From: Lysobacterales bacterium
Lineage (GTDB): Bacteria > Pseudomonadota > Gammaproteobacteria > Xanthomonadales > Xanthomonadaceae
Assembly (NCBI GenBank): GCA_017302075.1
Contig: JAFLEB010000006.1
Coordinates: 1-43,199 of the forward strand
DNA: 43,199 nt
Direction of reading: 5' to 3'
Part shown: piece after piece, positions 20,194 through 31,666 of the stretch
Layout: each line of letters opens with the position of its first letter
Position numbering within the stretch: the stretch's first letter is position 1
Translations under genes and position numbers: made by a program
Notes under the pieces: generated by a model
Told to the model about the DNA's origin: nothing
Database searches by the model: none
The model's input: only the letters and a program-made list of their open reading frames with translations

Positions 20194-20829
20194 ATGGCCG
20201 CGGTGACCTGGTACTTCGATGTCGTTTCGCCCTTCGCCTACCTGCAATGGCAACGGTTGAAGCCGATGCACGGCATCGCCTGGACCTTCCGCCCGGTGTT
20301 GTTCGCCGCCTTGCTGCAGCACTACGGCCACTGCGGCCCGGCGGAATTCGCGGAGAAACGCCGCTTCACGTATCGCCACCTGCAGTGGCGCGCGGCACGC
20401 GCCGGCATCCCGCTGCGTTTCCCGCCCGCGCATCCCTTCAATCCGTTGCCGGCACTGCGCCTGTGCTGCGTCGCCGGCAACACCGCGCAAGCCATCGACC
20501 ACGCCTTCGACTTCGTCTGGCGCGAAGGCCGCGGCCTGGTCGATCCCGGCGACGTGTCCTGCCTCGCGCATCGGCTCGGCATCGACGATCCCGCTGCCGC
20601 GCTGGCCGATCCCGCCGCCAAGGCGGCGCTGCTGGCGAATGCCACCCGTGCCATTGCCGATGGCGTGTTCGGTGTCCCCAGCCTGGTCGCGGGCGGCCAC
20701 GTGTTCTGGGGCGAGGACGCCACCGACATGTTCCTGGATTACCTGGCCGATCCCGGCCTGTTCGACACCCAGGCCATCCGCCGCCTTGATGCGTTGCCAG
20801 TGGGTGCGGTGCGGAAGCGTGGCCCCTAG
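20194..20829 (+). CDS. 2-hydroxychromene-2-carboxylate isomerase-like protein (DsbA fold)
   Basis: This 211-residue protein is of the kappa-class glutathione transferase / HCCA isomerase family. The opening TWYFDVVSPFAYLQWQRL carries the active-site Ser12 where thioredoxin-like relatives have Cys. The helical insert and the closing GVFGVPSLVAGGHVFWGEDATDMFLDYL, including the cis-Pro turn GVPS, fit the fold. Known members isomerise naphthalene breakdown intermediates with glutathione; many chromosomal copies have no known substrate. It starts 8 bases after the exporter. It is the last gene before the repeat-rich accessory region. Confidence 0.9.
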   Translation: MAAVTWYFDVVSPFAYLQWQRLKPMHGIAWTFRPVLFAALLQHYGHCGPAEFAEKRRFTYRHLQWRAARAGIPLRFPPAHPFNPLPALRLCCVAGNTAQAIDHAFDFVWREGRGLVDPGDVSCLAHRLGIDDPAAALADPAAKAALLANATRAIADGVFGVPSLVAGGHVFWGEDATDMFLDYLADPGLFDTQAIRRLDALPVGAVRKRGP

Positions 20830-20954
20830 CGCCGCCTGACGATCGGCGACTTGGTGGGGCATGGGGGTATCGTCGACGCCACTGTTCACCGCTTCCTCAA
20901 ACGGGAGAGCGAGCATCACGCTTGCGGGAGAGGTCGCGCCGCAGGCGTGGGTGA

Positions 20955-21079
20955 GGGCCGGGAAAAGGGTATCGGAGTGGATTTTTCGCAAGGGGAAATG
21001 GCACGCCGCTCTTCCCCCTCCCTTGCGCAGCAGGGGAGGGTTGGGGAGGGATTGCCCCGCCATGGCGCATGCCCCGGAT
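20955..21079. repeat. Palindromic repeat, copy A
   Basis: About 125 bases are repeated almost exactly as copy B, which begins 131 bases later. Both contain TCGGAGTGGATTTTTCGC, then CTTCCCCCTCCC and GGGGAGGGTTGGGGAG facing each other around TTGCGCAGCA, then CCCCGCCATGGCGCATGCCCC. A more decayed relative lies just upstream (about 20909-20950, CGGGAGAGC...GCTTGCGGGAGAGG). It has no credible protein. The 20830-21210 stretch is otherwise empty. Confidence 0.85.
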
Positions 21080-21085
21080 CGTAAG

Positions 21086-21208
21086 GGGCCGTGGAAATGG
21101 TGTCGGAGTGGATTTTTCGCCGGTGCGCCACGGCCGCTCTTCCCCCTCCCTTGCGCAGCAGGGGAGGGTTGGGGAGGGGTTGCCCCGCCATGGCGCATGC
21201 CCCGATCC
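21086..21208. repeat. Palindromic repeat, copy B
   Basis: This is the second near-tandem copy of the element at 20955-21079. The main difference is the segment after ATTTTTCGC (CGGTGCGCCACGG instead of AAGGGGAAATGGCACG). The palindromic core CCCTCCC-TTGCGCAGCA-GGGGAGGG is unchanged, consistent with pairing being what is kept or with a recent duplication. Confidence 0.85.
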
Positions 21209-21210
21209 CA

Positions 21211-21576
21211 AGCGTCATCCACGCCCCAACAAGCGGCATGCACCTCGCTTCCAGTGCCGTGCACGGGCCAAAAAGCCGCATGCGCCTCGCTTCAAATGCC
21301 GTGCACGCCCCAAAAAGTGGCGTGCACCTCACCGCAAGCGCCATCCACGCCCGCCGCCTGCCGCATGCACCTCGCTCGAAGTGCCGTGCATGCCCGAAAA
21401 AGTGCCGTGCACGGGCCAAAAAGTGGCATGCACCTCACTCGAAGTGCCGTGCACGCCCGGAAACGTGCCGTGCACGCCGCAACCAGCGGCATGCACGCAG
21501 CCCCCGCGTGCGTCGCAGCCGCTGCGATGGGCGTGCGTTCCACTTGCAACCCCATCCACGCCACCGAGGGCTGCAT
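21211..21576 (+). repeat. Phased 21-base tandem repeat array, about 18 units
   Basis: Cores of the form CATGCAC, CGTGCAC or CATCCAC recur every 21 bases. Their T falls at 21218, 21239, 21260, 21281, 21302, 21323 and 21344, then after one extra base at 21366, 21387, 21408, 21429, 21450, 21471 and 21492, with weaker units in phase at 21555 and 21576. Units alternate between GGCATGCACCTCGCTT and GCCGTGCACGGGCCAAAA forms. Twenty-one bases is two helix turns and also seven codons. Read on the plus strand it gives a heptad such as SAVHARK or SGMHLAS, but the one-base insertion at about 21345-21365 changes frame midway. The last unit forms the start of the zinc-ribbon gene. Confidence 0.85.
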
Positions 21577-21775
21577 GTCGCTGGTGCCCTGCCTGTCCTG
21601 CGAACGCCCGGTCTCCACGCTGGCCACCGCCTGTCCCGCCTGCGGCGCACCGGTTCTGGACGACGCGCCCGGATGCCTGTCCGTGGTCCTGGGCATCGCC
21701 TATGCCGGCCTCCTGCTGCTGGGGCTCGGCGTGGGCCTGCTGTTCCTGGTCGCGCTGGTCGCCGTGGTGCTGTGA
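21575..21775 (+). CDS. Small zinc-ribbon membrane protein
   Basis: From ATG 21575 this is a 66-residue protein with two CxxC pairs (Cys6/Cys9 in VPCLSCERPVS and Cys20/Cys23 in ATACPACGAPV), a zinc-ribbon pattern. One strong transmembrane segment follows (about 36-64), rich in Leu, Val and Gly, to the C-terminus. Small proteins of this build are common and unassigned. The frame is open upstream through the second half of the 21-base array, so a longer product starting at ATG 21365 (136 residues with heptads such as SAVHARK) is possible. No good ribosome-binding site precedes either start. It lies 88 bases before the restriction-modification gene. Confidence 0.6.
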   Translation: MSLVPCLSCERPVSTLATACPACGAPVLDDAPGCLSVVLGIAYAGLLLLGLGVGLLFLVALVAVVL

Positions 21776-21863: not shown

Positions 21864-24800
21864 ATGACGGACACGGACGTGGCGGCCGCGCAGGCCTTCA
21901 TCGACAAATGGAAAGGGGTGGCGGCCAGCGAGCTGTCCACCTCGCAGAGCTTCCTGATCGACCTGTGCGAGCTGCTGGGCGTGGACCGCCCGCATCCCAC
22001 GCCCGAACAGGACTACATGTTCGAGCGCCCGCTGACCTTCCAGCATGCCGACGGCAGCACCAGCCCCGGCCGCGTGGACCTGTACCGGCGCGGCGCCTTC
22101 GTGCTGGAAAGCAAGAAGATCAAGGCCGGCGCGCATACCCGCGGCTTCGACGAAACCATGCTGCGCGCGCATTCGCAGGCCCAGGCCTACGCCCGCGCCC
22201 TGCCGGCCGCGGAGGGCCGCCCGCCGTTCCTGCTGGTGGTGGACGTGGGCCACCGGATCGAGGTGTTTTCCGAGTTCAGCCGCAGCGGCGGCAACTACGT
22301 CCCGTTCCCCGATCCGCGCAGCCACCGCATCGCCCTGGACGACCTGCGCGACCCCGCGGTCCGCCAGCGCCTGCGCAGCATCTGGCTGGACCCGCTGGCG
22401 CTGGACCCCAGCCGCGAATCCGCCCGCGTCACCCGCCAGATCGCCGCCCGCCTGGCCGAACTGGCCAAGTCGCTGGAACAGGCCGGCCACGCCCCGGAAG
22501 CGGTGGCGCAGTTCCTGATGCGTTGCCTGTTCACAATGTTTGCGGAAGACGTGCGCCTGCTGCCGGCCGACAGCTTCCGCACCCTGCTGGCCACCCACCG
22601 CGAGCGCCCCGACGTGGCCATGCGCATGCTGGCCCAGTTGTGGCAGGACATGGACGGCGGCGGCTTTTCCGCGGTGCTGGCGGAAGACGTGCTGCGCTTC
22701 AACGGCAAGCTGTTCAAGCAACCCGACACCCTGCCGCTGGACACCGCGCAGGTGGACCTGCTGATCGAGGCCGCCCGCGCCGACTGGAAGCACGTGGAGC
22801 CGGCCATCTTCGGCACCCTGCTGGAGCGCGCGCTCAGCCCGCAGGACCGGCACAAGCTGGGCGCGCACTACACGCCGCGCGCCTACGTGGAGCGGCTGGT
22901 CCTGCCCACCGTGATCGAGCCGCTGCGCGCCGAATGGAGCGATGCCCAGGCCGCGGCGTTCACCCTGGTGGCGGAAGGCAAGCAGGACGAGGCCGTGGCC
23001 GAACTGCTGCGTTTCCACCATCGCCTGTGCACCGTCCGCGTGCTGGACCCGGCCTGCGGCTCCGGCAACTTCCTCTACGTCACCCTGGAGCACCTCAAGC
23101 GCCTGGAAGGCGAAGTGCTGGGCGCGCTGGACGACCTGGGCCACCGCCAGACCGGCCTGGCCCTGGGCGGCGAGCGTGCGGACGCCGCTGCCGGCGAAAC
23201 CGTCGACCCGCACAACCTGCTGGGCATCGAGCTCAACCCGCGCGCCGCCGCCATCGCCGAAGTGGTGCTGTGGATCGGCTACCTGCAATGGCACTTCCGC
23301 ACCCGCGGCGACGTCAACCCGCCGGTCCCGGTGATCCGCGATTTCCGCAACATCGAGAACCGCGACGCGGTGCTGGCGTACGACCGGGTGGAATACGTCA
23401 CCGACGCGGCCGGCGTGCCGGTAACCCGCTGGGACGGGGAGACGATGAAGGTTTCGCCGGTCACCGGCGAGAAGATTCCGGACGAGACCGCGCGCAAGCC
23501 GCTGGAGCGCTACGTGAACCCGCGCAAGGCCGCGTGGCCGCAGGCGGATTTTGTGGTGGGGAATCCGCCGTTTATCGGTACCAAGCGCATGAAAGCGGCG
23601 TTGGGCGAAGGGTATGTGGAGGCGCTCCGCAAAACGTGGCCAGAAGTGCCCGAGTCCGCGGACCTGGTGATGTACTGGTGGCACCACGCTGCAACTTTGG
23701 TCGCCCGGGGTGCGTTGCAGCGATTCGGGCTGATTACCACCAATAGCCTCAAGCAGACATTCAACCGGGAAGTCCTGAATGTCGCTCTCTCGGGGAAAGC
23801 CCCTGTCACCTTGGTATTTGCGGTTCCGGATCACCCATGGGTGGACAGTACGGACGGAGCCGCCGTACGCATTGCCATGACGGTTGGGTCGGCCGCCGCT
23901 GGGAAAGGCCGACTGGCTGAGGTCGTGGAAGAAACCGAAACTGCGTCCGGCGAGACCGAGGTGACGCTGTCAGGGCGAAGCGGAATCATCCATGCGGACC
24001 TTCGGCTGGGCGCGAACGTGGCCGCAGCCGGGCCTTTGCGTGCCGGCGAAAAGATCGCCGGCATGGGGGTGGCGTTGCATGGATCCGGCTTTATCGTCGA
24101 GCCGGACGATGCGCGGCGCCTGAGCGTTCATGGCACTGCCGTCGTCAAACCGTATCTCGGTGGCCGCGATTTGTTGCAAGACAGGCGCGAACGCTACCTG
24201 ATCGACTTCAGCGGCATGACCCAAGAGGAGGCGCGGAACGCGAACTCGGCGGCTTTCCAGCACGTCATCGACTACGTGAAGCCGGAACGAGACCAGAACA
24301 ACCGGAAGGTGCTGAAGGATCTCTGGTGGCGCTTTGGTTGGGAACGCCCAGTATTGCGTGCCGCCCTGAAAGGGTTGTCGCGCTATATCGCTACAACGGA
24401 AACGTCGAAGCACCGCCCGTTCCAGTTTATCGATGGCACGTATCTTTGTGACCACTCGATTGTGTGCATCGCAATAGAAGACGCACTAGCTCTCGGCATT
24501 CTCTCCAGTACCTTGCATCACAAATGGGCTTTGGCAGCAGGATCAAGGCTCGGCGTTGGCAATGATCCTCGCTACAACAAAACACGTTGCTTCGATCCAT
24601 TTCCGTTTCCGGACGCGAATGCCGAACAAGCAAGCCGCATCCGCACCTTGGCCGAACACCTCGACGCCCACCGCAAACGCCAGCAGGCCGCCCATCCCGA
24701 TCTCACCCTGACCGGCATGTACAACGTGCTGGACAAGCTCCGCAGCGGCGAGCCGCTCACCGCCAAGGAGCGCGTGATCCACGAACAGGGCCTGGTCTCG

Positions 24801-25454
24801 GTGCTGCGGCAACTGCACGACGACCTGGACGCCGCCGTCCTCGACGCCTACGGCTGGTCCGACCTGCTGCCGCTGCTGCGCATTGCGATGGGCATGGATG
24901 CCCGAGTGCCGCGGGCGCAGGATGCGCAAGAGCGGCTGCACGGAAACGACGCCCCCGCCGAAGGCCAGACCCGCGACGATGCCAAGCGCGCCTTCGACGA
25001 GGCCATCCTCGAACGCCTGGTGGCCCTGAACGCCGAGCGTGCCGCCGAAGAAGCCCGCGGCCACATCCGCTGGCTGCGCCCCGAGTTCCAGAACCCACAA
25101 CACGCCCGCCCCGACGCGCCCGCAGACGCCGCGCCGGAGCAAGGCGATGCCTTCGCCGACGCGGACACCGGCACCGACAGCCCCTCTCCCCTTGCGGGAG
25201 AGGGTGGCGCGCAGCGCCGGGAGAGGGGAACGCCCGACAAGCCCATCCCCTGGCCCAAGGACACCGTGGCGCAGGTCCGCGCCGTCGCCGACGTGCTGGC
25301 CGCCAGCCCCGCGCCGCTGTCCGTGGACGACATTGCCGCGCGCTTCACCGCCCGCGGCCCATGGAAGAAGCGCCTGCCGCAACTGCTGGACATGCTGGTG
25401 GCGCTGGGCCGCGCCGAACCCCGCGAGGGCGGGGTGTATGGGGTGGGGCGGTAG
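21864..25454 (+). CDS. Single-chain type IIL restriction-modification enzyme (MmeI-like)
   Basis: This 1196-residue protein appears to hold both nuclease and methyltransferase. The N-terminus carries a PD-(D/E)xK-type site, Asp72 in GRVDLYRRGAF and Glu82-Ser-Lys84. A helical spacer (about 190-340) is followed by LGAHYTPRAYVERL, the SAM-binding DPACGSG (395-401) and the catalytic NPPF (567-570), an adenine-methylase type. The target-recognition region (about 600-930) includes DPRYNKTRCFDPFPFPD. The C-terminal tail ends in a winged-helix-like segment (about 1135-1190). Such enzymes methylate one strand and cut at a distance, with no separate specificity subunit. Bases about 23540-24640 are visibly less GC-rich in third positions than both flanks. 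A palindromic repeat lies inside the tail. GGGGGGAGGGG precedes ATG 21864. Confidence 0.87.
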   Translation: MTDTDVAAAQAFIDKWKGVAASELSTSQSFLIDLCELLGVDRPHPTPEQDYMFERPLTFQHADGSTSPGRVDLYRRGAFVLESKKIKAGAHTRGFDETMLRAHSQAQAYARALPAAEGRPPFLLVVDVGHRIEVFSEFSRSGGNYVPFPDPRSHRIALDDLRDPAVRQRLRSIWLDPLALDPSRESARVTRQIAARLAELAKSLEQAGHAPEAVAQFLMRCLFTMFAEDVRLLPADSFRTLLATHRERPDVAMRMLAQLWQDMDGGGFSAVLAEDVLRFNGKLFKQPDTLPLDTAQVDLLIEAARADWKHVEPAIFGTLLERALSPQDRHKLGAHYTPRAYVERLVLPTVIEPLRAEWSDAQAAAFTLVAEGKQDEAVAELLRFHHRLCTVRVLDPACGSGNFLYVTLEHLKRLEGEVLGALDDLGHRQTGLALGGERADAAAGETVDPHNLLGIELNPRAAAIAEVVLWIGYLQWHFRTRGDVNPPVPVIRDFRNIENRDAVLAYDRVEYVTDAAGVPVTRWDGETMKVSPVTGEKIPDETARKPLERYVNPRKAAWPQADFVVGNPPFIGTKRMKAALGEGYVEALRKTWPEVPESADLVMYWWHHAATLVARGALQRFGLITTNSLKQTFNREVLNVALSGKAPVTLVFAVPDHPWVDSTDGAAVRIAMTVGSAAAGKGRLAEVVEETETASGETEVTLSGRSGIIHADLRLGANVAAAGPLRAGEKIAGMGVALHGSGFIVEPDDARRLSVHGTAVVKPYLGGRDLLQDRRERYLIDFSGMTQEEARNANSAAFQHVIDYVKPERDQNNRKVLKDLWWRFGWERPVLRAALKGLSRYIATTETSKHRPFQFIDGTYLCDHSIVCIAIEDALALGILSSTLHHKWALAAGSRLGVGNDPRYNKTRCFDPFPFPDANAEQASRIRTLAEHLDAHRKRQQAAHPDLTLTGMYNVLDKLRSGEPLTAKERVIHEQGLVSVLRQLHDDLDAAVLDAYGWSDLLPLLRIAMGMDARVPRAQDAQERLHGNDAPAEGQTRDDAKRAFDEAILERLVALNAERAAEEARGHIRWLRPEFQNPQHARPDAPADAAPEQGDAFADADTGTDSPSPLAGEGGAQRRERGTPDKPIPWPKDTVAQVRAVADVLAASPAPLSVDDIAARFTARGPWKKRLPQLLDMLVALGRAEPREGGVYGVGR
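25181..25230 (+). repeat. Palindromic repeat inside the restriction-modification gene
   Basis: CCCCTCTCCCCTTGCGGGAG continues to GAGAGGG and then a second CGGGAGAGGGG: the same CTCTCCC/GGGAGAGG hairpin family seen between genes at 29803-29846 and, more weakly, at 20909-20950. Here it is read in frame as SPSPLAGEGGAQRRERG in the linker before the winged-helix tail. The codon frame stays open, which is consistent with an inserted repeat tolerated in a disordered linker. Confidence 0.75.
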
Positions 25455-25979: not shown

Positions 25980-26061
25980 CCGCAGGGACGGGAGGTAAGC
26001 GACGTTCGCGCCTCCGCCCCGGTCCTTGATTTGTCAGTCGTTCCAACCCGCAACGAATCCC

Positions 26062-26709
26062 ATGCCCGACATCGTCTACGTCCTCACCAATGAAGCCATG
26101 CCCGGCATCGTCAAGATCGGGCTGACCACCGACAGCGTGGAATCGCGGCTGGCCGGGCTGAACAGCCATAGCGGCGTGCCATTGCCGTTCGAGTGCTACT
26201 TCGCCGCGGAAGTGGATTCCTGCACCCGCATCGAGCGCATCCTCCACCAGTTGTTCTCCGAGCACCGCATCAACCCGCGCCGGGAGTTCTTCCGCGTGGA
26301 CCCGGAGAAAGTGGTACTGGCCATCAGCATCGGCATGTACAAGGAAGTGACCCCGGGCAGCGTGATCGCCGAGCCGCAGGACCAGGAAGCCCTGGAGAAG
26401 GAGAAGGCGCGCCGCCCGCGCATCCGCCTGGATGCCCTGGGCATCCCGGTGGGCGCGGAGCTGACCCTCTCGCGCGACGAGACCATCACCGCGACGGTCG
26501 TTCCCGGGAACAAGGTGATCTACAACGGCCAGGTGTGCAGCCTCTCCGCGGCCGCCTTGCAGGCCTTGCACGGGCTGGGCTATCGCACGCCGTCCGCCAG
26601 CGGTTCCGAGTACTGGCAGTTCGACGGGGAGTTGCTGGACGAACGCAGGCGGCGGATGGAGTCGGAACGCTTCGATGCGCCGTCGGCCAGTGCGGAAGGC
26701 GAGGGGTAG
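26062..26709 (+). CDS. GIY-YIG-type (T5orf172-like) protein with RAMA-like C-terminus
   Basis: This 215-residue protein opens with VYVLTNEAMPGIVKIGLT, then SRLAGLNSHSGVPLPFE and RIERILHQLFSEHRINPRREFF. That is the pattern of the T5orf172/MUG113 branch of GIY-YIG nucleases: the core strand pair, the Arg, and a Glu-bearing helix. After a charged linker (about 115-135) comes LDALGIPVGAELTLSR, then YNGQVCSLSAAALQAL and SGSEYWQFDGELLDERR. This resembles the RAMA domain found on restriction and modification enzymes, thought to read modified DNA. A DNA-targeting defence or repair role is likely but unproven. ATG 26062 begins the conserved part; an in-frame ATG at 26026 has no support. It lies in a plus-strand run with other nuclease-like genes. 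Confidence 0.75.
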   Translation: MPDIVYVLTNEAMPGIVKIGLTTDSVESRLAGLNSHSGVPLPFECYFAAEVDSCTRIERILHQLFSEHRINPRREFFRVDPEKVVLAISIGMYKEVTPGSVIAEPQDQEALEKEKARRPRIRLDALGIPVGAELTLSRDETITATVVPGNKVIYNGQVCSLSAAALQALHGLGYRTPSASGSEYWQFDGELLDERRRRMESERFDAPSASAEGEG

Positions 26710-27638: not shown

Positions 27639-28511
27639 ATGAAAGGACTCAAGAACGTCCGCCACCGCCGCAGCGATGCGCTGACCCAGGTCGGCTGGGA
27701 TCGCCTGGAATCGATGCTGGCGGCCTACTACGCCGGCCAGGGCTACCGGGTGGAGCACTGCGGCACCGGCGCCAGTCGCGCCCGCTTCGATGGCGGCATC
27801 GACCTGAAGCTGCGCAAGGACGAGGCCTACCTGCTGGTGCAGTGCAAGCACTGGAACGCCAAGCAGGTGCCGCACAACGAGGTGCACCAGCTGATCGGCC
27901 TGATGGTCACCGAGCGCGCGACCGGGGCGGTCCTGGTCACCAGCGGCGAGTTCACCCGCGCGGCCATCGAGGCGGCGGCCAAGCAGCCGCAGCTGCAGTT
28001 GGTGGATGGCGACGACCTGCGGACGATGCTCGGGCCGTTGCCGGAAGTGTCGCCGCCAGCGGCGCGGTTGCCCGACGTGTCGGCGCCGATCCGCCATGTC
28101 GCCACCCGCGTCGGCGAACGCCTGTTGTCCGCCGCCGAGGACCGCATCCGCCACGGCGCGGGAGGCCGCGGGCGGGCAGGGCGTCGCGGTGGCGGGGTGG
28201 TGGCGCAGGCCATCGGCACCGGGCTGGGGATCATCCTGGCGAAAGTGGTGTTCGTGCTCATTGGCTTCTTGCTGTTGCTGGCCGCGATCCAGTTCGCGAG
28301 TTCGCGCCTGCGCGATGCGGCGCATCGGCCGGCCAGCCCGCCATCCGTGGGCGTGGTGACAGTGGGCAGCCCGAGGCCGATGCCATCCGCGCAGGCCACC
28401 ACGACGGCTGCGCCGGTGGGCCGCGAGCCAACGCCCGAGGAAATCCGCGCATCGCAGCGGCGGGCCGACGAGGCGATCCGGGTGATCGAACACAGCACGC
28501 CGGAAATGTGA
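27639..28511 (+). CDS. Membrane-anchored Mrr-type restriction endonuclease
   Basis: The N-terminal about 130 residues of this 290-residue protein form an Mrr_cat nuclease domain. WDRLESMLAAYYAGQGYRVE leads to the active site, Asp55 in DGGIDLKLRK and Gln68-Cys-Lys70 in LLVQCKHW, then ERATGAVLVTSGEFTRAA and a closing LVDGDDLRTML. The Q-x-K form of the PD-(D/E)xK site is usual for Mrr proteins, which cut modified or foreign DNA. After an Arg/Gly-rich linker there is one transmembrane segment (about 195-219) and a 70-residue low-complexity tail. Positive charges before the segment suggest the nuclease faces the cytoplasm. A membrane-tethered nuclease in an operon suggests a defence role. The next gene starts 9 bases later. 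Confidence 0.85.
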   Translation: MKGLKNVRHRRSDALTQVGWDRLESMLAAYYAGQGYRVEHCGTGASRARFDGGIDLKLRKDEAYLLVQCKHWNAKQVPHNEVHQLIGLMVTERATGAVLVTSGEFTRAAIEAAAKQPQLQLVDGDDLRTMLGPLPEVSPPAARLPDVSAPIRHVATRVGERLLSAAEDRIRHGAGGRGRAGRRGGGVVAQAIGTGLGIILAKVVFVLIGFLLLLAAIQFASSRLRDAAHRPASPPSVGVVTVGSPRPMPSAQATTTAAPVGREPTPEEIRASQRRADEAIRVIEHSTPEM

Positions 28512-30980: not shown

Positions 30981-31484
30981 ATGGCACTTGATCGAATCAC
31001 CCTGACCCTGCCCACCGCCAAGCTGACCGCCATAGACAACGCGCTGGTTGCCCTGGAAACCGCCCTGACCGAGCTGGTCGCCCTGGAACCGGAGGACCGC
31101 AAGCGCCTGCCGAAGATGGGCGACAAGTCCGAGGCCTTCTGCCGCCAGACCCTGACGGTGATGGCCCAGAACCCGCAGATCGTGAACCCCAGCCTGGGCC
31201 TGCCGGCCGCGCAGGCGGACCTGGCGGCACTGGACGTGTTGCGGCCCCGCCGCCAGCGCGTGCAGGCCCTGCTGGAACGCATGCAGGACACGGAAACCCT
31301 GCTGGGCAGCGACGTGATGGCCGCGGCACTGGAGGCCTACGGATTGCTGAAGGTCTCCGGCAAGAGCCAGGGCCTGAGCGCGTTGCGTGCGGGCTTGTCC
31401 GCCCGCTTCAACAAGGGCAAGTCCAGCTTGAAGCGGCTGCGCGCCGCCAATGACGCGGACGGCGGTAGCGGCAAGGTCGCCTGA
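30981..31484 (+). CDS. Hypothetical protein, mostly helical
   Basis: I do not recognise this 167-residue soluble protein. It is rich in Ala and Leu and probably nearly all helical: LTLPTAKLTAIDNALVALETALTELVAL, then RKRLPKMGDKSEAFCRQTLTVMAQNPQIV and VLRPRRQRVQALLERMQDTETLLG. The basic tail (ARFNKGKSSLKRLRAAN) could bind nucleic acid. The segment around PKMGDKSEAFCRQTL looks like the most conserved part. GAGG lies 11 bases before ATG 30981. It stands alone with its own possible promoter and a strong terminator, so it is probably well expressed. Confidence 0.75.
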   Translation: MALDRITLTLPTAKLTAIDNALVALETALTELVALEPEDRKRLPKMGDKSEAFCRQTLTVMAQNPQIVNPSLGLPAAQADLAALDVLRPRRQRVQALLERMQDTETLLGSDVMAAALEAYGLLKVSGKSQGLSALRAGLSARFNKGKSSLKRLRAANDADGGSGKVA

Positions 31485-31536
31485 CCCCGGGCTGCGCCGT
31501 CAGGGGAGCGGCGACACCAGGGGTTGCGTGACAGTG

Positions 31537-31564
31537 ATCGGGCCCTGCGGGGCCCGATTTTTTT
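31537..31564 (+). terminator. Strong intrinsic terminator
   Basis: ATCGGGCCC-TGCG-GGGCCCGAT forms a perfect 9-base stem with a tetraloop, followed by a run of T (31558-31564). It lies 53 bases after the orphan gene and ends the accessory region on the plus strand. Confidence 0.95.
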
Positions 31565-31666
31565 GGGGACCAACACCCCACCGCCGTGACCAACCGCCCG
31601 CCGCATCGACAGCGCGCGCGGCTTGCGCTTCACTCGCGGGCTGATGCCAACAGGCGAGGAACGGCA

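What the first reader, a model, noticed from the sequence alone, without database searches (positions are those of the whole stretch)
21211..21576. Strictly phased 21-base repeat array running into a zinc-ribbon gene
About 18 cores of the form (C/G)(A/G)T(G/C)CAC fall every 21 bases, with one single-base insertion at about 21345-21365. The period is exactly two DNA turns, so all cores face one side of the helix, as for a protein that binds cooperatively. It is also seven codons: before the insertion one plus frame reads heptads such as SGMHLAS and SAVHGPK, and after it another frame continues with SAVHARK and SGMHLTR straight into the zinc-ribbon membrane protein. So it is either a phased binding array or a repeat-bearing secreted or membrane protein gene recently broken by a one-base shift. 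It stands 288 bases before a restriction-modification gene, and most cores contain or extend GTGCAC or GCATGC.
Basis: seen in the sequence. Interest (0 to 1): 0.75.

Follow-up and report, generated by a model that had tools for sequence, protein, structure and literature searches.

The report
Displaced phased DNA repeat array
A run of 21-letter DNA repeats beside a restriction enzyme gene looks like a displaced example of an apparently undescribed arrangement, seen in several bacterial groups, in which the gene of a small helical protein is followed by repeats spaced two DNA turns apart; it could be a new kind of DNA element.

Summary
The array is real: 14 contiguous 21-bp units (21211-21505), one +1 slip near 21350-21358, decaying copies to about 21576. 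It is not coding: no codon-position pattern, little coding GC bias, conservation confined to a contiguous core. Diverged arrays in relatives led to a small all-helical protein family ('HB', my name; no Pfam/NCBIfam match above cut-off, no PDB relative found). Of 127 HB loci tested, 76 have a 21/42(/63)-bp array on the 3' side, against 5 of 123 on the 5' side, in gammaproteobacterial, Spirochaete and Bacteroidales-type sets alike. Period and core-plus-linker layout are shared; unit sequence is not. The window holds its genome's only detected HB gene (30981-31484), 9.4 kb from the array, across a restriction island (MmeI-type IIG, Mrr, T5orf172). In congener G003 the order is HB, terminator, array, MmeI. 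So the window array fails the adjacency test itself and is filed as probably displaced. HB-array pairs precede restriction or defence genes in several lineages, not in most loci. Best reading: a helically phased double-stranded DNA array forming a nucleoprotein platform with or for HB; binding and regulation are inferred. The repeat-protein reading is rejected. No description was found in 10 open-licence literature searches.

The parts
20955..21204 (.). two copies of a ~128-bp repeat just before the array (carry GAGTGGATTTTTCGC and a CCCTCCC...GGGAGGG stretch)
   Evidence: 88% match; 72-bp core 99%
21211..21351 (.). array part 1: seven 21-bp units in phase 0
21350..21358 (.). region of the single +1 base slip (cores at 21342 and 21364 are 22 apart)
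21359..21505 (.). array part 2: seven 21-bp units in phase +1
21506..21576 (.). decayed in-phase remnants (21532, 21553)
21575..21775 (+). 66-aa ORF with two CxxC pairs and a hydrophobic C-terminus ('zinc ribbon'); coding-like GC; no clear full-length relative in the limited correct-frame tests
   Evidence: no Pfam family on the whole 304-aa frame (first protein)
21864..25454 (+). MmeI-type (type IIG) restriction-modification gene
   Evidence: Pfam MmeI_N, MmeI_hel, MmeI_Mtase, MmeI_TRD; PADLOC REase_MTase_IIG E=0
26026..26709 (+). T5orf172/MUG113 gene
27639..28511 (+). Mrr_cat restriction endonuclease gene
   Evidence: PF04471 E=3e-24
30981..31484 (+). HB gene: small all-helical protein (167 aa), the only one detected in this assembly (86.8% complete)
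31536..31566 (+). terminator-like hairpin plus T run after HB (by eye); its counterpart in G003 lies between HB and that genome's array
   Evidence: G003 hairpin also found by script

Best explanation
The array is a non-coding, helically phased double-stranded DNA element: cores ~12-13 bp long, with dyad symmetry, recur every 21 bp (two B-DNA turns) and so face one side of the helix. It resembles, and by synteny with congener G003 probably derives from, arrays that lie directly 3' of a gene for a small all-helical protein (HB), with period and core-plus-linker layout shared and unit sequence private to locus or lineage. SHOWN: phasing, non-coding nature, HB-array linkage in three separate sets of genomes, self-complementary units, recurrent placement 5' of restriction/defence genes, and the changed order in this window (array-MmeI-island-HB, against HB-array-MmeI in G003). 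INFERRED: the array is a multi-site platform on which HB, alone or with a partner, builds a nucleoprotein complex; this complex probably sets expression or maintenance of neighbouring genes, here the MmeI-type R-M gene 288 bp on. In the window HB would have to act over 9.4 kb, or the array is a relic.
For: Array 3' of HB: 40 of 73 loci against 5 of 72 on the 5' side (mostly gammaproteobacteria; includes discovery loci of G003, G167, G179 and L106); loci fetched by HB score alone: 20 of 30 against 1 of 30 in the first family set (a subset of the 73), 19 of 26 against 0 of 25 in the family of Treponema genome G674, 17 of 28 against 0 of 26 in the order of Prevotellaceae genome G682. Terminator between HB stop and array in 36 of 72 array loci, 32 of them gammaproteobacterial (of 45), against 2 among control stretches. 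Dyad score p<=0.05 in 13 of 41 arrays, window p=0.025; fold energy against column-permuted arrays mean z -2.2 and -2.4 on the two strands, below -2 in 26 and 27 of 48. HB identity and array 5-mer similarity correlate (Spearman 0.59, n=38; 0.46, n=31 GC-rich; p 0.001; shared ancestry not removed). R-M/defence next door: G131 HB-array-HsdR-HsdM, G674 HB-array-KAP-methylase and HB-array-Abi_alpha, G702 HB-array-NACHT; next same-strand gene is a methylase or BspD6I-type nuclease in 4 of the 19 array loci; G003.
Against: HB proteins are mostly acidic (median pI 5.67, 15 of 72 above 8; window's 9.6), and neither HB model matched a solved structure convincingly, so direct DNA binding is unproven. Two Treponema paralogues with 88% identical HB have very different arrays (cosine 0.19), against simple sequence-specific recognition. 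51 of 127 HB loci failed the array test, the window's own HB among them; some of these have other above-null lags (in one search: 43 in five, 45 in three, 20, 33 and 18 in one each). Dyads were not significant in 28 of 41 arrays. In the set 12 of 19 arrays start within 50 bp of the HB stop, so a transcript is possible there. Most gammaproteobacterial HB loci have no R-M gene next door, and by eye none of the 28 loci has one as its first ORF (L462 has an HNH-like ORF).
Confidence: 0.5

Rival explanations
1. Ordinary minisatellite: neutral tandem array grown by replication slippage in an intergenic gap, with no function.
For: Only one such array detected in the genome and none of this sequence in 24 congeners; 42/63-bp superperiods look like stepwise duplication; tandem repeats of other kinds are common in the same family, and the reversed control pattern hits some of them too.
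Against: 3' linkage to HB in three sets with one period but unrelated unit sequences is not expected of neutral slippage; conservation is concentrated in a contiguous core (p 0.008).
Confidence: 0.2
2. Structured RNA: the array is transcribed as a chain of small hairpins that HB or another protein binds.
For: Self-complementarity above column-permuted arrays; 12 of 19 Spirochaete arrays start within 50 bp of the HB stop; HB mostly acidic.
Against: Terminator between gene and array in 36 of 72 loci; both strands similarly self-complementary; 21 bp suits B-DNA turns rather than the ~11-bp turn of an RNA duplex (recalled); no Rfam match in the window at gathering scores.
Confidence: 0.15
3. Selfish cassette: HB plus array is a small mobile or duplicating element that settles in defence islands, with no role for the host.
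For: Up to 12 HB matches (some of them fragments) in one genome (G131; G568); copies in G568 share ~240 bp upstream, HB and array but not flanks; truncated HB with array (G167 C48); changed order in the window relative to G003.
Against: No recombinase family matched HB; no terminal repeats or target duplications seen by eye in the one alignment made.
Confidence: 0.25
4. Coding: a heptad-repeat secreted or membrane protein gene, recently frameshifted.
For: 21 = 7 codons; the three plus frames of the window array are open.
Against: No codon-position pattern (p 0.92), weak GC codon bias, all plus frames closed in 6 of 48 arrays and all six in 2, lags of 20 and 43 in relatives.
Confidence: 0.02

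Closest known systems
Plasmid iterons (Rep-binding direct repeats spaced by whole helical turns)
   Same: tandem ~20-22-bp units in phase with the helix, near the gene of a presumed binding protein (iteron features recalled)
   Different: HB matches no Rep family in Pfam; many loci on chromosome-sized contigs; up to 12 HB matches per genome; unit sequence differs even between paralogues of one genome
parS/parC-type centromere arrays (ParB, ParR, StbA)
   Same: small protein plus array of direct or dyad sites (recalled)
   Different: HB matches no partition family in Pfam; partition ATPases were not searched for; placement next to R-M genes
CRISPR arrays
   Same: repeat array next to a protein gene, sometimes beside defence genes
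   Different: contiguous 21-bp units without unique spacers; cas genes were not searched for
REP/BIME elements with RAYT transposases
   Same: palindromic intergenic repeats (recalled)
   Different: tandem 21-bp period, HB instead of a Y1 transposase (one Y1-like neighbour by eye, L451)
C-protein operators of type II R-M systems
   Same: small regulator with dyad sites upstream of an R-M gene (recalled)
   Different: many phased units instead of one or two operators; HB matches no helix-turn-helix family in Pfam

Membership tests
HB-linked 21-bp array (arrangement defined here) | 21-bp period | tested here: met
HB-linked 21-bp array (arrangement defined here) | non-coding | tested here: met
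HB-linked 21-bp array (arrangement defined here) | array directly 3' of an HB gene | tested here: not met
   array is 9.4 kb away on the 5' side of the window's HB, which has no array beside it (L324). At the corresponding MmeI locus of G003 the feature is met. So the window array is called a probable displaced relative that may work like these arrays, not a full member.
MmeI-type (type IIG) R-M enzyme (gene 21864-25454) | N-terminal, spacer, methylase and TRD domains | tested here: met
Plasmid iterons | adjacent Rep initiator gene on a replicon | tested here: inconclusive
   HB has no Pfam match; not every gene of the window was scanned
CRISPR array | identical repeats separated by unique spacers | tested here: not met
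   units are contiguous
Minisatellite / VNTR | tandem units | tested here: met
Minisatellite / VNTR | copy number varies between strains | not testable with these tools
   one genome of this species held; none of 24 congeners carries this array
Heptad-repeat protein gene | codon-position constraint within the repeat | tested here: not met
   (p 0.92)

The most novel reading that the evidence does not exclude
HB plus phased array is a widespread, previously undescribed two-part genetic module: a small helical protein and a locus-private, helically phased DNA array that together act as a control or protection platform, repeatedly recruited in front of restriction-modification and other defence genes in at least three bacterial groups.
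Probability: 0.35. Interest if true: 0.9.

Novelty: categorically new. Interest (0 to 1): 0.78.

Why it matters
If right, a large set of almost unannotated genes (2868 relatives at E<=0.001 among the 7999 candidates scored; 482) comes with a DNA part that gene-centred annotation misses. Holding a 21-bp period while unit sequence changes, even between 88% identical paralogues, poses a sharp question about how a protein could read phase rather than sequence. The link to restriction and defence genes gives a place to test function.

Tried and rejected
Sequence-level searches for the array: none in plasmids or phages, in 20 relatives or in 24 congeners. A GTGCAC-type phased pattern in 395 family genomes gave 26 genomes, outside the own one mostly single hits, plus a 7-bp microsatellite (G049) and L023, a 21/22-bp CATCCAC array of unclear relation. 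HB was found in 7 of the 40 genomes behind loci that I chose (one is L106's own). Fold searches of two AlphaFold models gave nothing credible, nor did a profile search of PDB sequences; this does not show a new fold. Literature: 10 searches of open-licence PMC papers, listings and abstract starts only, no paper opened; nothing on such arrays or this protein family was seen. Most subscription papers and all preprints were not searchable.

Left out of the pooled counts: the 16 loci, since their genomes were picked for 21-bp arrays. There the best 3' lag was 21/42/63 above null in 9 of the 13 with enough sequence (others: 35, 41, 54, 18), and on the 5' side in 1 of 15.

R-M enrichment control: nearest large ORFs beside HB, 76 on the 3' and 76 on the 5' side, against 81 ORFs beside 44 other same-family loci. 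PADLOC at 1e-8 matched 0 of 81 controls. HB 3' side: at least 5 of 76 (L355 HsdR, L390 methylase, L312 type IIG, L394 KAP/PDC-S20, L398 Abi_alpha/PDC-S47); HB 5' side: at least 3 of 76 (type I methylases; two are L305 and L313, the third not identified) (members assigned, partly by eye; both family lists were cut at 25). The control holds no Spirochaetes or Bacteroidota, so it is only partly matched. The wide contexts were chosen largely because of these hits; they are examples, not a sample.

My own errors: (third protein), 24, 56, 57 and 116 read the 'zinc-ribbon' ORF in a wrong frame (21574 or 21576 instead of 21575) and say nothing about it. Correct-frame tests are first protein; one partial plasmid hit, 24 aa. 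The upstream gene was scanned in a wrong frame too; it starts near 20194 and looks DsbA-like from memory only.

Full report
Observation. The window is all of contig C182 of an unnamed 2.77-Mb assembly, 86.8% complete. It has 14 contiguous 21-bp units at 21211-21505 with one +1 slip between the cores at 21342 and 21364, and decayed copies to about 21576. Two-core pairs: 16 in the window against 0.53 expected, at most 3 in 100 shuffles. Two linker types roughly alternate, so a 42-bp period scores slightly higher than 21. The array ends 288 bp before a type IIG R-M gene with all four MmeI domains.

Not coding. Over 14 units, columns 1-13 vary less (mean entropy 0.56) than 14-21 (1.30; contiguous-core test p 0.008), with no codon-position pattern (p 0.92). 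GC by codon position is nearly flat across 20900-21500 and becomes biased in the following small ORF. Against this, the three plus frames of the array happen to be open. The small ORF (21575-21775) has coding-like GC but no strong relative in the limited correct-frame tests.

How relatives opened the case. Close MmeI relatives were found in G003 (71%), G012 and G005 (87%, both cut by contig ends); other congeners have only distant ones. G003 carries, just before the gene, a different 21-bp phased array sharing an AAGYG step and the near-palindromic 11-mer CACTCGAAGTG with the window (by eye); G012 and G005 show none by eye in the stretch read. A search for four AAGYG steps at 21 bp in 395 family genomes hit 27 genomes, many by 7-bp microsatellites, which the reversed control pattern hits in other genomes too, but also six diverged arrays like that of G003 (L273, L276, L277, L283, L284, L293). 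Four of these (L277, L283, L284, L293) lie just 3' of the same kind of gene.

The HB family. Proteins of ~155-167 aa, no Pfam or NCBIfam family above cut-off, no PADLOC family at a convincing score (best 0.011), no PDB relative. AlphaFold gives nearly the same helix order for the window's HB (pLDDT 82) and a Treponema HB (pLDDT 86). Relatives: 2868 at E<=0.001 among 7999 candidates scored and 482. Of the 120 listed in each call, those with a source name are called hypothetical or uncharacterized (organisms such as Lysobacter, Luteimonas, Pseudoxanthomonas, Treponema), except three JGI labels 'Mla subunit MlaD'. HB was found in 66 of 198 family genomes, 3 of 275 of a class sample (own, one of the same family, and G568), 47 of 195 of the family of G674 (Treponema by its record title), 28 of 247 of an order sample around G682 (Prevotellaceae by its title), and 7 of 40 chosen genomes. 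The own genome has one detected copy, inside this window at 30981-31484.

Gene and array go together. I scored the best autocorrelation lag within 900-1000 bp of HB against block shuffles. First set (73 loci, including discovery loci of G003, G167, G179 and L106): 3' side 40 of 73 with lag 21/42, 5' side 5 of 72; other above-null 3' lags were 43 (five), 45 (three), 20, 33 and 18 (one each). The 30 loci of this set fetched by HB score alone gave 20 of 30 and 1 of 30 in an earlier run. Spirochaete loci fetched by HB score alone: 19 of 26 and 0 of 25 (lags 21/42/63 in a scan of 14-69). Loci of the G682 order likewise: 17 of 28 and 0 of 26; above-null 3' lags outside the class were 20, 43, 43 and 66. 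Sum: 76 of 127 against 5 of 123. Misses include the window's own HB.

Anatomy. In 72 arrays already picked by period, well-matched neighbours are 21 apart in 218 of 219 cases. Unit sequences differ, for example GTGGACGTCGGCTCTCTGAGA, GTCGGAGTTCGGAGCTTCAAA and AAATCTAGTTCGGAGCTAGAT at three HB loci of one Treponema genome (read by eye). Self-complementarity exceeds column-permuted arrays (26 of 48 below z -2 on one strand, 27 on the other); dyads reach p<=0.05 in 13 of 41 arrays, including the window's (0.025). A terminator-like hairpin separates HB and array in 36 of 72 loci, against 2 among control stretches: 32 of the 45 gammaproteobacterial loci, 4 of the 27 others. In the set 12 of 19 arrays start within 50 bp of the HB stop.

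Neighbours. Counts and control are in Tried and rejected. Examples: G131 HB-array-HsdR-HsdM and a third gene that looks like HsdS; G188 and G210 HB divergent from a type I methylase; G682 methylase-HB-array-methylases; G674 HB-array-KAP-methylase and HB-array-Abi_alpha; G702 HB-array-NACHT. In the 19 array loci the next same-strand gene is an N6/N4 methylase (L419), C5 methylase (L422), type III Mod (L425) or BspD6I-type endonuclease (L424), so 4 of 19 (no matched control for Spirochaetes). By eye none of the 28 loci shows such a gene as first ORF, apart from an HNH-like ORF in L462.

The window's own arrangement. Array, small ORF, MmeI, T5orf172, Mrr, an HTH gene, then HB, while G003 has HB, terminator, array, MmeI. 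The array and HB bracket a restriction island in the window; a rearrangement of an ancestral HB-array-MmeI order is my inference. G012 has a distant HB relative about 180 bp from its MmeI gene, in divergent orientation. Because adjacency to HB was tested and not met, I call the window array a probable displaced relative.

Mechanism. Constant phase with changing letters, dyads and adjacency to one protein family point to a DNA-level nucleoprotein platform. That HB itself binds is inferred and is weakened by its usual acidity and by near-identical HBs having unlike arrays. Regulation of the next gene is my preferred role; mobile cassette, neutral satellite and RNA remain open.

Novelty. No family library searched names HB and no paper listing in 10 searches describes such arrays; only open-licence papers were searchable. 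I therefore rate the HB-array arrangement as categorically new, and the window's array as its probable displaced relative.

Noticed in passing
L023 1434-1620 (G159): Another intergenic 21/22-bp tandem array with CATCCAC cores in another genus of the family; relation to HB not seen.
   Followed up: partly
window 20955-21204: Two ~128-bp direct repeats immediately before the array, with a GAGTGGATTTTTCGC motif resembling the GGGGTCAGAGTGGATTTCC element next to the G003 array (by eye).
   Followed up: no
L333-L346, L367-L374 (G568): Several HB copies (12 matches, some fragments) in one gammaproteobacterial genome; in two of them (C105, C179) the HB match is split at the same place by about 41 bases. 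Copies share upstream sequence, HB and mostly the array, but not flanks.
   Followed up: partly
L273 (G203): HB and array lie 2.4 kb apart with a subtilase-like ORF (by eye) between them, so array and HB can be separated elsewhere too.
   Followed up: no
L041-L159 and L160-L256: Many phased 21-bp RTSCAC arrays in other bacteria and viral contigs, all but L106 without HB in the stretch held; not examined one by one.
   Followed up: no
L388 and L390: In a Spirochaetaceae and a Prevotellaceae genome HB follows ORFs with similar C-termini (...DNDGLENVE...), the latter a methylase.
   Followed up: partly
L451 (Bacteroidales set): Y1-transposase-like ORF (by eye) about 0.9 kb downstream of an HB gene with an array.
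   Followed up: no
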